The translations under genes and the position numbers were made by a program. Below, piece after piece: positions 7,612-14,769 of a DNA stretch of 58,387 bases. Numbering within the stretch: the stretch's first letter is position 1; every line of letters begins with the position of its first letter. The stretch is taken from positions 1 to 58,387 of the forward strand of contig NHEC01000063.1 of assembly GCA_002171655.1 (NCBI GenBank). The letters are read 5' to 3'. This DNA is from Planctomycetes bacterium TMED75 (lineage in GTDB: Bacteria > Planctomycetota > Phycisphaerae > Phycisphaerales > SM1A02). Below the pieces are notes generated by a model. The model saw nothing but the letters and a program-made list of their open reading frames with translations, was not told where the DNA came from and did not search any database.

Positions 7612-7992
7612 GAGTGCTTCGCGATGGGTGTCTGGGTTCAAAAAGAGTCGTTGATTGGTCAAAAACGGAGTCCGAAAACCAAGTGAAAAACCATGTGAAC
7701 GAAAGGTGGAGATGGACCAGTTCCTGAGTGAGGGTCAGTATAAAACAAACAGGTGTTTCTGGCAGCTCGCCTGAGCTTGCTGGAGACTGCTTGGGGGATG
7801 TGTCTGAAGGTGGTTGCAGTCAAAGTTGTCAAAAGTCAGCAAAGGATCTTGTAGTTCATCGTTCTTCAGGAAGCATAGAGCTTGATGGTTCTGCCCGCCC
7901 ATGACCCCGTGCCGTCATGGGTGCCCTCGTCGGCCTGGCCAAATGCTTTCTGCGCTCATGCGAAAATACCCCAAACTGTGGAGATCAAGAAG

Positions 7993-9033
7993 ATGGTGAA
8001 AACTGACCCACGTCTCGGTTACGCTGGCCTCGGGCTTGCGGTCACGCTGAGCTGTGCGACATTGGTTCACGCTCAGGCAATCAACTGCACGGCTGACATC
8101 GATGGAGATGGTGCAGTTGGCGGGACCGATCTTGCGGGCCTGCTGGCTTACTGGTTGACAGACAATGCCGATGCCGATCTTGATGGAAGTGGCCAGGTGA
8201 ACGGGCAGGATCTAGCAACGCTCCTTTCGCAGTGGGGTCTTGATTGCGATGTCAATCCCTTCTGCGACTCGGTTCAGGTCGAGTACACCGACGACATGAT
8301 GGTCGTCAGTACCTCAGGACTCCCATGCCATGAAACCGGTCCCTTCGATGGTACGTACTTCGATCCCTATACCGGCCAGTACTGCTTCAATCCGAATACT
8401 CCGTCCAATCAGAATAATGTATGGATGATTCCGACAACGCCGACTCCGACCAACGCACCAGCTATCGATGTGCTCAATACCCTCGGCCCGATCGGGGTCA
8501 CGATCACCGGGGCGTCGTTCTACAACCCCTACGACGGGGGTGGCGTACCGGCGCCTGGCAACATCTGCATGGACTATTGCCAGGGACATGCCTCTCCAGA
8601 TGGCAGCTACCACTACCACCAGATGAGTCCCTGTTTCAACCAGAACGATGATCCCGACGGTCATTCCGGACTGATTGGATACGCCTTCGACGGGTATGCG
8701 GTCTATGGCTTGAACGATACCGGCGGCTCGCCACCCACGGATCTCGACCAATGCGGTGGGCACACCGACGCGGTTCGAGGTTACCACTACCACTTCCAAA
8801 GTGAATTTCCGTTCACCCTGGGTTGCTACCGCGGAGAGCCCGAGCTCTCAAACTTCGGGGGTGGCGGCGATGGCCCCGGCGATGGCCCTGGCGGCGGTGG
8901 TTGCTCCGGCTGTGCGGCCCTCATGATTCCCCCAAACGTCTGCAATTGCGTTCACACCACACCCGGTTACGAAGGTTGTTGCCTTGATTGGACGCCTGAT
9001 TGCCAGGCCTACGCTGATCAGTTCTGCAACTGA
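7993..9033 (+). CDS. Secreted YHYH-domain protein with N-terminal dockerin-like pair
   Basis: A 346-residue exported protein. A signal peptide occupies about residues 8-28. It is followed directly by two EF-hand-like dockerin repeats (DIDGDGAVGGTDLAGLL near 35-51 and DLDGSGQVNGQDLATLL near 62-78). A YHYH domain spans about 90-280 with two YHYH motifs (206-209, 264-267) and cysteines. A glycine/aspartate linker leads to a C-terminal cysteine cluster (CC..W.PDC....FC). Function of YHYH domains is unknown. Start ATG 7993 is taken because it places the signal peptide correctly; an upstream in-frame start at 7882 is unlikely. The dockerin at the N-terminus is odd: in the neighbours it is C-terminal. 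Confidence 0.85.
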   Translation: MVKTDPRLGYAGLGLAVTLSCATLVHAQAINCTADIDGDGAVGGTDLAGLLAYWLTDNADADLDGSGQVNGQDLATLLSQWGLDCDVNPFCDSVQVEYTDDMMVVSTSGLPCHETGPFDGTYFDPYTGQYCFNPNTPSNQNNVWMIPTTPTPTNAPAIDVLNTLGPIGVTITGASFYNPYDGGGVPAPGNICMDYCQGHASPDGSYHYHQMSPCFNQNDDPDGHSGLIGYAFDGYAVYGLNDTGGSPPTDLDQCGGHTDAVRGYHYHFQSEFPFTLGCYRGEPELSNFGGGGDGPGDGPGGGGCSGCAALMIPPNVCNCVHTTPGYEGCCLDWTPDCQAYADQFCN

Positions 9034-11146: not shown

Positions 11147-11785
11147 TCACGGCTTTGGGGCATCCTGCTTCCACGTGGTGAGCAGATGGTCCCCTGGGGT
11201 GGTGCTGATTCGAGCTCGAGGAGTGCGTGTCGTGTCGCTGAGTTCTATGAACGCCTCACCCGAAACCGTGGTTCCGCTGGACAGTCTTGGTAATCCGTTT
11301 TCATCAAAGAAATAGACCGCCGCATTCCCATCTTGTGGCCCGCCACTGGACATTCGCAGTCGCCCTTTTCCATCGAACTGCCTGAACCAGTGCTGTCCGG
11401 TTGCAGAGGTGACCGCGGCACATCGAAGGGTTCCGTCAGGAGCCAGCAACTGGAAGCCAGCCTCATTGTCGGTGAACGTGAATGCAGCGATTCTGGGTCG
11501 TCCCTGAGTATCGTAGACGTCCACCGATCCGGTTCCCTGGGTGTTGGTGGTGAGTGCGGCCCGCGGCGTACCATTCGTATCGAGGGTTTCAATGACTGCC
11601 GTACCGTCGTCCCTTACGCCAAGCCGGATTCGCACTCGTCCCTTCTGGTCGGTCAGTTCGATCGGCTTGCTTGCCAAGGAGGTTTCTTTGGATCCTGCAG
11701 TCTGTTCCTGATCTTGATCCGAGGCGGCGGCGAGGCCCAAGGCGATTCCTGCACCAAGGACGATGCAGCTCAGCGAGTTCTTCAT
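11147..11785 (-). CDS. Exported protein of seven tandem 23-residue repeats
   Basis: A 212-residue protein: signal peptide (about residues 1-22), short linker, then seven repeats of exactly 23 residues with no insertion (41-63, 64-86, 87-109, 110-132, 133-155, 156-178, 179-201), and an 11-residue tail. The repeat pattern is two beta-type hydrophobics, D-x-x-G-x-P/L-R, then a small/polar half, for example VDVYDTQGRPRIAAF. This predicts a regular beta-solenoid or similar stacked fold. I do not recognise a named family. The ATG overlaps the stop of the upstream UPF0173 gene in ATGA, so the two are co-translated. It converges with the cytochrome gene 9 bases away. Confidence 0.85.
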   Translation of the reverse strand: MKNSLSCIVLGAGIALGLAAASDQDQEQTAGSKETSLASKPIELTDQKGRVRIRLGVRDDGTAVIETLDTNGTPRAALTTNTQGTGSVDVYDTQGRPRIAAFTFTDNEAGFQLLAPDGTLRCAAVTSATGQHWFRQFDGKGRLRMSSGGPQDGNAAVYFFDENGLPRLSSGTTVSGEAFIELSDTTRTPRARISTTPGDHLLTTWKQDAPKP

Positions 11786-12462
11786 GAAATTGATTCCGTC
11801 TCTAGGGTTTGACCGGGTTCCAGGAATCTGGTCTCGATCCCTGCAGGGTTGAACAGCTGGTGATCGACCCGGATCGGATCCCACGTGTTGTAATGGCAGG
11901 GGATCACGAGACGGGGGCTGATCCATTCAGCGGCCATTGCCGCGTGCTTCGGTCCCATGGTGAAGCGATCGCCAATTGGCAGAATCGCGATGTCGGGGCG
12001 GTACAGAGTCTTAATGAGCTTCATGTCGCTGAAGAGTGCGGTATCCCCGGCAAAGTACGTTCGGTGCCCTCCCATGGTGATGACCGCACCCAGCGGATCT
12101 CCCATGTAGCGTCCTTGGAAGGATGAGGAGTGGAGGGCAGGGGTGAAGTCGATCGATCCGAATGGGGCCTGAATGCAGCCTCCGGTGTTGCCGGGTTCGA
12201 GGTCAGTGACCCCTTGTTCGCCAAGATAGGTCGTGATCTCATGAGTGGCGAAAACGGTGGCTTTGCACCGCAGAGCGATATTGGCTGCATCCGCCATGTG
12301 GTCCTCGTGGCCATGGCTCACCAGGATGTGGGTGCATTGAATGGCTTCGGCGGGCGTGGTGCACGACGGATTGTCGTCGTGAAACGGGTCCAGCAGCAAG
12401 CGATGAGTTCCATCATCAAGGAGGAACGTGGAATGTCCGTGGTAGGTGATCTTCAAGGGCAT
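11782..12462 (-). CDS. UPF0173-type metallo-beta-lactamase-fold hydrolase
   Basis: A 226-residue metal-dependent hydrolase. The binuclear metal motif H50-x-H52-x-D54-H55 (VSHGHEDH) follows MPLKITYHGHSTFLL, a typical opening of the UPF0173 group; YFAGDTALFSDM and the late VIPCHYNTW supply the remaining ligands. No signal peptide, so cytosolic. Substrate unknown in the family. It is the first gene of a two-gene unit with the repeat protein at 11147-11785, sharing an ATGA overlap; why a cytosolic hydrolase and an exported repeat protein should be coupled is not evident. Confidence 0.9.
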   Translation of the reverse strand: MPLKITYHGHSTFLLDDGTHRLLLDPFHDDNPSCTTPAEAIQCTHILVSHGHEDHMADAANIALRCKATVFATHEITTYLGEQGVTDLEPGNTGGCIQAPFGSIDFTPALHSSSFQGRYMGDPLGAVITMGGHRTYFAGDTALFSDMKLIKTLYRPDIAILPIGDRFTMGPKHAAMAAEWISPRLVIPCHYNTWDPIRVDHQLFNPAGIETRFLEPGQTLETESIS

Positions 12463-12597: not shown

Positions 12598-14769
12598 TCA
12601 CTCGGGGCAGAATCCCCAGTTGCCAAGCACGATGGCAAGGTCCAGACCATTGACGGCCTGGTCATTGTTGAGGTCGCCGAGGACCCCCTGACCGCTCTGT
12701 CCCCAGGTGCCGAGAACGCTGGCCAGGTCAGTACCTCCGACGCTTCCATCGCCGTCGGTATCGGCAATGCAGTCGACCGGAGTTCCGTCGCAACTCAGTG
12801 CCACAAGCTTGAAGGCATCAATGCCTGCTTCAACCACGGAGCCTGGATCATTGTCCGTGGCCGTGCATCGGATACGAAGCCCACTGGTGACATTCACGTA
12901 GTCGCCAACCCGCCATGAGCTGGTGGTCCAGCCGGTCTGCGCGCTGTCGCCATTGGAGATCGCCGCGAGTTGACTCCAGCTGGATCCGGAGTCGCCACTG
13001 ATCTCGATGAGGAAGACATCATCGTATTCCGTGTTGTTTGCACTGGTGTTGTCGTACCACCAGGCCAGACTCAGTTCTGTATCGGGGCTTTCAACCGCAT
13101 AGATCGACGAAGTCAGGATCGTGGAACCTCCATCGATGTCCCTGGCGCATGCCGATGCCGAAATGCCATTTTCAGTGACCCAGCAGAACCCGCTGCCGTC
13201 CGCATCTCCACCCGGTGCGCTGCAGGTGTCCACGGAGGTGCTGTCGGTCGAAGGAATGGCTCGTTCCCAGCCACCGGCAGTCGCGGTCGTGGACACGGTC
13301 CATCCTGCTGATGTATTGAAGTCAACCAGGGCAATCTCTTCCAGGCTGTCGGCGACTGAGGCCGTGAAGGCTCCTGCGCTGGGGAGCCTTCGAGTGGTTC
13401 CCGAAGAATCGTCTGCGGTGAAGTACCAGGCAAGCTGGGCGCCACAGGGAAGTTCTGGCAGCGTCGCTGAGTAGACGCTGTTGCCCTGGTCCGTCAGAGC
13501 AACCGACTGGTTCAGGGAGCCGGTTGTGTAGTTCAGGCGGGCACTTCCGTCGACGTAACCATTGGATTCGATTTCGGTGATTCGAACACCGAGGGTGGGT
13601 CCGGAGGGAGAGACAAGCTCGGGGACTGATCCCGTCAGGCTCAATTCAATGAGCTGTACAATCGGTTCTGTCAGATCCGACCGGTAGTACTCTAGAGTGC
13701 AGCGCATTCTTCGGTTCTGGTCGGGAGTGAACTGCTCCATGCAGATGTCGTCGGAGTAGTCCATGTAGTTGTCATCGGGAACCGGCGTACTGCATGCCGA
13801 TCCGTTGCACCCGAAGGTCGGAGAGCCCTGGGGGGCGGTATCGCAGATGAGGTCGCCACCGGTCGTGCAGCTGCCGCTTTCGCAGCCTCCGTTGAAGGTG
13901 TGGTTCAGTCCCAGGTAGTGTCCCACTTCATGGGTCAATGTGCGACCAAGGTTGTAGGGAGAACCGATCGGTGCGTTTTCGCCGTAGGATTCCCAGAGCA
14001 CGACGACTCGATCCGAAGCGGAGCCGGGACTGCCGCACGCTGGAAGAAACGGTACGTAGCCGAGATTCCCCCCGGCAGTCGTGGTGTAGATGTTCATGTA
14101 CCGGGAGGGGTCCCAGTTCAGAGAATTGAAATAGTTGCCACCATCGTTGTACCAGGTGTCGTTGTTGGAAAAGGTGATACCGGTGGTGGGGTTGCCATCA
14201 GGGTCGACTTCCGCCAGGTAGAACTCGATCTGAGCGTTGTTTCCGTTGGCTCCGTTGGTACCGGCCTGAGCCTTGAAGTCCTCGTTGAGAATCCGAATCC
14301 CGCTGATCACTCGGTCCACAGGGATGTCGCCAAGAGTGCCTGAGCTATTTCGGATCACATGAACAACGCAGGGGATGCGCAAGAGTCCGACTGAAGGGTC
14401 GTACTGGGCGGTGGGGTTCGTGTTCGAACAGGAGCAGTCGGATGGAGGCGCCATGGCAAGGGCTCCGTCCAAGACCTCCTGAGCAGGCGCATGTGCGCCG
14501 CAGCGATGGTCGTTGTTTCCATTTGCTTCACGGTCACCGAAGTAGCCCTTCCAGCTTGTGAATCTTCGTCCCTGGAAGTGGACGGTACCGTCGTTTGTCT
14601 GCCAGGGCCGGTCACTGCTCAGCAGGCGGATCCGCTCGGTCGAGAGTTCGGTGGAGTCTGTTTTCTGACTGCTTGCATCGGGCTGGGCGAAGGCTGTAGT
14701 TGCGGTGAGGCACAGCCCCAGGGTGAGTCGCATGGTAGAGATCATCGACAGGCTCCAGAAACGTTTCAT
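12598..14769 (-). CDS. Secreted M43-type (pappalysin-like) zinc metalloprotease with dockerin
   Basis: A 723-residue exported protease. After a signal peptide (cleavage near residue 28, TTAFA-QPD) comes a pro-region, then a metzincin domain with H280-E281-x-x-H284-x-x-G-x-x-H290 and the Met-turn NYMDYSDD around M336. Paired cysteines around 296-327 resemble M43 enzymes. The middle third has beta-rich segments, including a jelly-roll-like stretch (about 500-660). The last 58 residues are a dockerin-like pair (DTDGDGSVGGTDLASVLG and DLNNDQAVNGLDLAIVLG). It should digest extracellular protein. Monocistronic, with a hairpin after the stop. Family assignment from motif; exact substrate unknown. 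Confidence 0.9.
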   Translation of the reverse strand: MKRFWSLSMISTMRLTLGLCLTATTAFAQPDASSQKTDSTELSTERIRLLSSDRPWQTNDGTVHFQGRRFTSWKGYFGDREANGNNDHRCGAHAPAQEVLDGALAMAPPSDCSCSNTNPTAQYDPSVGLLRIPCVVHVIRNSSGTLGDIPVDRVISGIRILNEDFKAQAGTNGANGNNAQIEFYLAEVDPDGNPTTGITFSNNDTWYNDGGNYFNSLNWDPSRYMNIYTTTAGGNLGYVPFLPACGSPGSASDRVVVLWESYGENAPIGSPYNLGRTLTHEVGHYLGLNHTFNGGCESGSCTTGGDLICDTAPQGSPTFGCNGSACSTPVPDDNYMDYSDDICMEQFTPDQNRRMRCTLEYYRSDLTEPIVQLIELSLTGSVPELVSPSGPTLGVRITEIESNGYVDGSARLNYTTGSLNQSVALTDQGNSVYSATLPELPCGAQLAWYFTADDSSGTTRRLPSAGAFTASVADSLEEIALVDFNTSAGWTVSTTATAGGWERAIPSTDSTSVDTCSAPGGDADGSGFCWVTENGISASACARDIDGGSTILTSSIYAVESPDTELSLAWWYDNTSANNTEYDDVFLIEISGDSGSSWSQLAAISNGDSAQTGWTTSSWRVGDYVNVTSGLRIRCTATDNDPGSVVEAGIDAFKLVALSCDGTPVDCIADTDGDGSVGGTDLASVLGTWGQSGQGVLGDLNNDQAVNGLDLAIVLGNWGFCPE

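What the first reader, a model, noticed from the sequence alone, without database searches (positions are those of the whole stretch)
11147..11785. Seven gapless 23-residue repeats in an exported protein
Residues 41-201 divide into seven units of exactly 23 residues with no insertion or deletion, each with a D-x-x-G-x-P/L/V-R turn. Such strict periodicity implies a regular solenoid or stacked beta fold. I know no named family with this repeat, and it is co-translated (ATGA) with a UPF0173 hydrolase.
Basis: partly seen in the sequence, partly recalled or inferred. Interest (0 to 1): 0.6.

Follow-up and report, generated by a model that had tools for sequence, protein, structure and literature searches.

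The report
Exported single-layer beta-sheet repeat protein
A small exported bacterial protein is built from seven equal 23-residue pieces that are predicted to zip up into one long, thin, open protein sheet, a shape known mostly from engineered proteins, and it belongs to an unnamed repeat family found across its phylum.

Summary
The gene at 11147-11785 (-) encodes 212 residues with seven gapless 23-residue units (0 of 5000 shuffles reach the observed periodicity). Two of the seven turns depart from the stated D-x-x-G-x-x-R motif.

The protein is not a beta-solenoid. AlphaFold2 gives a confident, strictly regular run of antiparallel hairpins (pLDDT 88; an 11-unit relative 94). The best PDB matches, by fold and independently by sequence, are engineered OspA variants with extra hairpins, whose central sheet is a single layer without a hydrophobic core.

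Relatives with 4 to 18 gapless units (one of 21 with a single break) occur across the window's order and phylum, and on Nitrospirota plasmids. Many carry an N-terminal coiled coil and membrane anchor. No Pfam, NCBIfam or PHROG family covers them. The UPF0173 overlap is real and conserved in one orthologue from another genus, but two same-genus genomes keep UPF0173 without the repeat gene, so the pairing is not obligate.

Best explanation: a natural, extracytoplasmic single-layer beta-sheet rod. One face is uncharged (0 of 49 positions); the other carries an invariant arginine ladder. It probably works as a spacer or binding platform. The fold is well supported; the function is inferred.

The parts
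11147..11785 (-). repeat protein gene, 212 aa, seven 23-residue units
   Evidence: orthologue L002 53% identical over 173 residues; synonymous excess against it
11720..11785 (-). N-terminal hydrophobic signal or anchor (residues 1-22, MKNSLSCIVLGAGIALGLAAAS)
   Evidence: read from sequence; no lipobox seen; signal predictor not available (inference)
11594..11662 (-). unit 1 IELTDQKGRVRIRLGVRDDGTAV
11525..11593 (-). unit 2 IETLDTNGTPRAALTTNTQGTGS
11456..11524 (-). unit 3 VDVYDTQGRPRIAAFTFTDNEAG
11387..11455 (-). unit 4 FQLLAPDGTLRCAAVTSATGQHW (A for the turn D)
11318..11386 (-). unit 5 FRQFDGKGRLRMSSGGPQDGNAA
11249..11317 (-). unit 6 VYFFDENGLPRLSSGTTVSGEAF
11180..11248 (-). unit 7 IELSDTTRTPRARISTTPGDHLL (R for the turn G; least conserved in the orthologue)
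11782..12462 (-). UPF0173 metal-dependent hydrolase; its stop overlaps the repeat gene's start as ATGA; neighbour, probably not an obligate partner

Best explanation
The protein is exported across the cytoplasmic membrane and folds into one continuous, open antiparallel beta-sheet in which each 23-residue unit is one beta-hairpin: a strand (positions 22-4), a DxxGx turn, a strand (10-16), and a second turn with D19-G20. Seven hairpins would give a ribbon of about 15 strands, roughly 7 nm long. It works like the central sheet of Borrelia OspA, extended in tandem as in the engineered OspA 'peptide self-assembly mimics'. The faces differ: positions 1, 3, 10, 12, 14, 16 and 22 form an uncharged, mostly hydrophobic face. 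Positions 2, 4, 9, 11, 13, 15, 17, 21 and 23 form a polar face with an invariant Arg11 ladder. The likely role is a rigid extracytoplasmic spacer or binding platform whose length is set by copy number. The uncharged face probably pairs with a second sheet or a partner. Shown: repeats, family, conservation, predicted fold. Inferred: export, face assignment (from strand spacing, not coordinates), pairing and role.
For: Period 23 far beyond chance. AlphaFold2 pLDDT 88.4 / pTM 0.74, 15 strands, constant 6/7-residue strands and 5-residue gaps through the array, no helix; 11-unit relative pLDDT 94.4 with the same pattern. Foldseek: the 18 best PDB hits are all OspA or PSAM entries (engineered or mutant), best E 3.4e-11, query TM up to 0.81 to 2fkj; 2fkj is also the top hit for the 11-unit model, E 1.9e-13. 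Independent sequence hits to engineered OspA in the same 23-residue register: phmmer 4.9e-7, profile 1e-6. Relatives vary in copy number in 23-residue steps. Uncharged face 0/49 charged against 32% on the other face; hydropathy difference 0/20000 permutations. Units are conserved position by position in the orthologue (55% identity between matching units, 26% among units of one protein), with third-position and synonymous excess.
Against: The 11-unit model superposes less well over its full length on OspA (query TM 0.59, rmsd 10 A), so long arrays may curve. Foldseek also finds MORN and Rhs hairpin arrays, with lower scores, and hairpin repeats match each other readily. A strongly hydrophobic face is unusual for a stable lone sheet. 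No function or localisation is shown. Two same-genus genomes lack the gene, so it is dispensable there.
Confidence: 0.65

Rival explanations
1. The units form a curved shell or spiral of hairpins, as in Rhs/YD-repeat proteins and teneurins, perhaps enclosing a cargo.
For: The turn (Y/F)DxxGRxR resembles the YD repeat; RHS_repeat is the best weak Pfam match to consensus-like relatives (E 4.8e-4, below cut-off); Rhs chains appear among the Foldseek hits.
Against: Query TM only 0.17-0.25 to Rhs and teneurin chains against up to 0.81 to OspA; seven hairpins are too few to close a shell; no RHS core domain was matched.
Confidence: 0.12
2. It is a MORN-type hairpin array, working as a membrane-associated or dimerising rod.
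For: MORN repeats are also hairpins of about 23 residues (own knowledge); MORN1 structures are Foldseek hits (query TM 0.39-0.56) and viral MORN proteins reach 0.68.
Against: No MORN Pfam hit to the window protein; MORN_2 only weakly in two relatives, below cut-off; no YxGxWxxG pattern; OspA scores better.
Confidence: 0.1
3. It is an accessory subunit of the UPF0173 hydrolase, co-translated so that the two act together.
For: ATGA overlap; the same order, with adjacent genes, in the only orthologue found, in another genus.
Against: Same-genus G002 and G003 keep UPF0173 without the repeat gene; other family members inspected have other neighbours; the hydrolase has no evident export signal in its sequence.
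Confidence: 0.08

Closest known systems
Engineered OspA with tandem hairpins (peptide self-assembly mimics; PDB 2fkj, 2oy7, 3cka, 3eex)
   Same: 23-residue hairpin units, single-layer antiparallel sheet; best sequence and fold matches in the PDB
   Different: Engineered, and the sheet is capped by two globular domains (PMC3776556); here natural, uncapped in the model, 4 to 18 or more units in relatives
Natural Borrelia OspA central sheet
   Same: Single-layer sheet of hairpins in an outer surface protein (PMC12183334)
   Different: Short central sheet between two globular domains; wild-type entries score much lower (1osp query TM 0.38) and were not among the listed sequence hits; common ancestry not shown
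CPAP/SAS-4 TCP domain (PDB 4by2)
   Same: Natural, uncapped single-layer sheet of repeated hairpins, turns often with a PDG motif; binds a proline-rich peptide along one edge (PMC3776556)
   Different: Eukaryotic centriole protein; fold match weaker (query TM 0.51); both faces solvent exposed
MORN repeats
   Same: Tandem hairpins of similar length; moderate fold match
   Different: Different motif; no Pfam match above cut-off
Rhs/YD repeats
   Same: (Y/F)DxxGRx turn; weak Pfam RHS_repeat match in relatives
   Different: Rhs arrays form large closed shells (own knowledge); query TM 0.25 or less

Membership tests
OspA-type single-layer beta-sheet fold | Consecutive antiparallel hairpins in one continuous sheet | tested here: met
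   Predicted only:
OspA-type single-layer beta-sheet fold | 23-residue hairpin unit in register | tested here: met
   Profile alignment to 3eex and others in a 23-residue register
OspA lipoprotein family (as homologue) | Significant match to natural OspA including its globular caps | tested here: not met
   Significant sequence hits are the repeat-extended OspA variants only; no OspA Pfam hit; no cap domains in the model
MORN repeats | Pfam MORN match above cut-off | tested here: not met
Rhs/YD repeats | Pfam RHS match above cut-off | tested here: not met
   Window RHS E 0.23; relatives RHS_repeat 20.9 bits against cut-off 22
Rhs/YD repeats | Closed shell around a cargo | tested here: inconclusive
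   Low TM to Rhs chains; coordinates not available for curvature
Unnamed 23-residue DxxGxxR repeat family defined here | Three or more contiguous units scoring above the shuffled maximum | tested here: met
   Seven units, (score threshold 5, shuffled maximum 3.6; profile built from the same proteins)
Unnamed 23-residue DxxGxxR repeat family defined here | N-terminal coiled coil plus membrane anchor (seen in many relatives, not taken as required) | tested here: not met
   By eye: the window protein has only a short hydrophobic N-terminus

The most novel reading that the evidence does not exclude
Bacteria of this phylum use covalent, genetically length-tuned amyloid mimics: open single-layer beta-sheets that pair through their uncharged faces into two-layer cross-beta ribbons outside the cytoplasm, acting as rigid spacers or matrix elements.
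Probability: 0.25. Interest if true: 0.7.

Novelty: new variant of a known kind. Interest (0 to 1): 0.45.

Why it matters
[quoted passage not shown] A natural bacterial family with 4 to 18 gapless units, in the same 23-residue step as the engineered variants, would show that such sheets are extended freely in nature. It would supply ready-made length series for studying sheet stability, pairing and amyloid-like assembly, and would name a repeat now annotated only as hypothetical protein.

Tried and rejected
Beta-solenoid reading: rejected by the model and by Foldseek. Flagellar FlgE_D2, Por_Secre_tail and PHROG hits: weak or below cut-offs, taken as chance. Viral origin: no relative in viral contigs (one pattern set each) or phage records. 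Antibody chains in the PDB sequence search: weak, taken as chance. Conserved gene neighbourhood for the relatives: none evident from longest-ORF maps of ten loci (ORFs not assigned to families). Literature searches for this repeat returned nothing relevant. Promoter and terminator scan: nothing.

Full report
Observation. The gene at 11147-11785 on the minus strand encodes 212 residues. Sequence self-similarity peaks sharply at lag 23 and again at 46; no shuffle of 5000 reaches it. The seven units have no insertion or deletion. Five of seven keep the full D-x-x-G-x-[PLV]-R turn; unit 4 has A for D and unit 7 has R for G. The final R of the motif is present in all seven.

It is a real, constrained gene. 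One orthologue was found, in another genus of the same family (G010, L002, 53% identical over 173 residues), with the same seven units in the same order. Matching units are 55% identical, whereas units within one protein average 26%, so the array is old and each unit is held separately rather than freshly duplicated. Differences fall by codon position as 53, 41 and 102, and 50 of 70 single-difference codons are synonymous.

Family. Searches in 400 genomes of the order gave matches in 49 (E <= 1e-5), and in 392 genomes of the phylum in 32 (E <= 1e-10). Among the proteins recovered from the first two searches, copy number varies in 23-residue steps: gapless arrays of 4, 5, 6, 7, 8, 11 and 18 units, and one of 21 with a single break. 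Some more distant hits are less regular, and the 18-unit proteins are close relatives, several from one genus. Many relatives share a layout absent from the window protein: an N-terminal coiled-coil-like stretch, a hydrophobic segment, and a conserved FDxITCKxWxVVDKDGKxRI lead-in (read by eye). Related proteins also occur on Nitrospirota plasmids and one Isosphaeraceae plasmid, annotated hypothetical. No Pfam, NCBIfam or PHROG family describes the window protein; Pfam gave relatives only sub-threshold or isolated chance-like matches.

Fold. With an alignment of relatives fetched by the search for related loci (A6), AlphaFold2 gave pLDDT 88.4 and pTM 0.74: strands of 6 and 7 residues in strict alternation with 5-residue gaps and no helix. 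An 11-unit relative gave pLDDT 94.4 and the same pattern. In the PDB the 18 best fold matches are all OspA or PSAM entries, engineered or mutant; 2fkj aligns with query TM 0.81. The sequence search, independent of the model, also puts engineered OspA first (4.9e-7; profile 1e-6 in register). Wild-type OspA is weaker, and the caps are absent here, so this is likeness of fold, not shown common ancestry. CPAP's TCP domain is a natural precedent for an uncapped single-layer sheet and binds a peptide along its edge (PMC3776556).

Faces. On that assignment one face has no charged residue in 49 positions in the window protein and in its orthologue, the other has about a third charged, and permutation within units never reaches the hydropathy difference. 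Identity to the orthologue is 49% on the uncharged face and 63% on the other; I did not test that difference for significance. An uncharged face suggests pairing with a second sheet or a partner, which is inference.

Neighbour. The ATGA overlap with UPF0173 is real and the gene order is kept in the orthologue, together with the M43 peptidase and the convergent genes. In same-genus G002 and G003, UPF0173 is present and no repeat gene follows it. The gene was therefore probably lost there, and the hydrolase does not need it.

Verdict. An unnamed, widespread repeat family with a confidently predicted OspA-like single-layer sheet; function open. Interest is moderate: the fold type is known, but a natural tandem series of it in bacteria was not found described in the library searched.

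Noticed in passing
window 12598-14769 (-) and 7882-9033 (+): An M43-type peptidase with a dockerin-like C-terminal match (below cut-off) and a YHYH protein with a Dockerin_1 match above cut-off lie near the repeat gene.
   Followed up: partly
L059, L066 compared with L040, L045: Repeat proteins from records titled Chitinophaga pinensis and Limnohabitans are identical to those in genomes that the search tool places in the window's own family, so those record names look mislabelled.
   Followed up: partly
L079 3835-4495: The Manganitrophus GAC2 plasmid copy does not read through as one frame and is annotated as two hypothetical proteins, while L078 has an intact one; both lie beside CusA-type efflux genes.
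   Followed up: no
L059 2666-5166: Several repeat-protein genes stand in tandem, suggesting local gene duplication.
   Followed up: no
L076, L077: UPF0173 is kept without the repeat gene in two same-genus genomes; in L076 the convergent cytochrome-like gene follows directly, in L077 a formamidopyrimidine-glycosylase-like gene does (read from sequence).
   Followed up: yes
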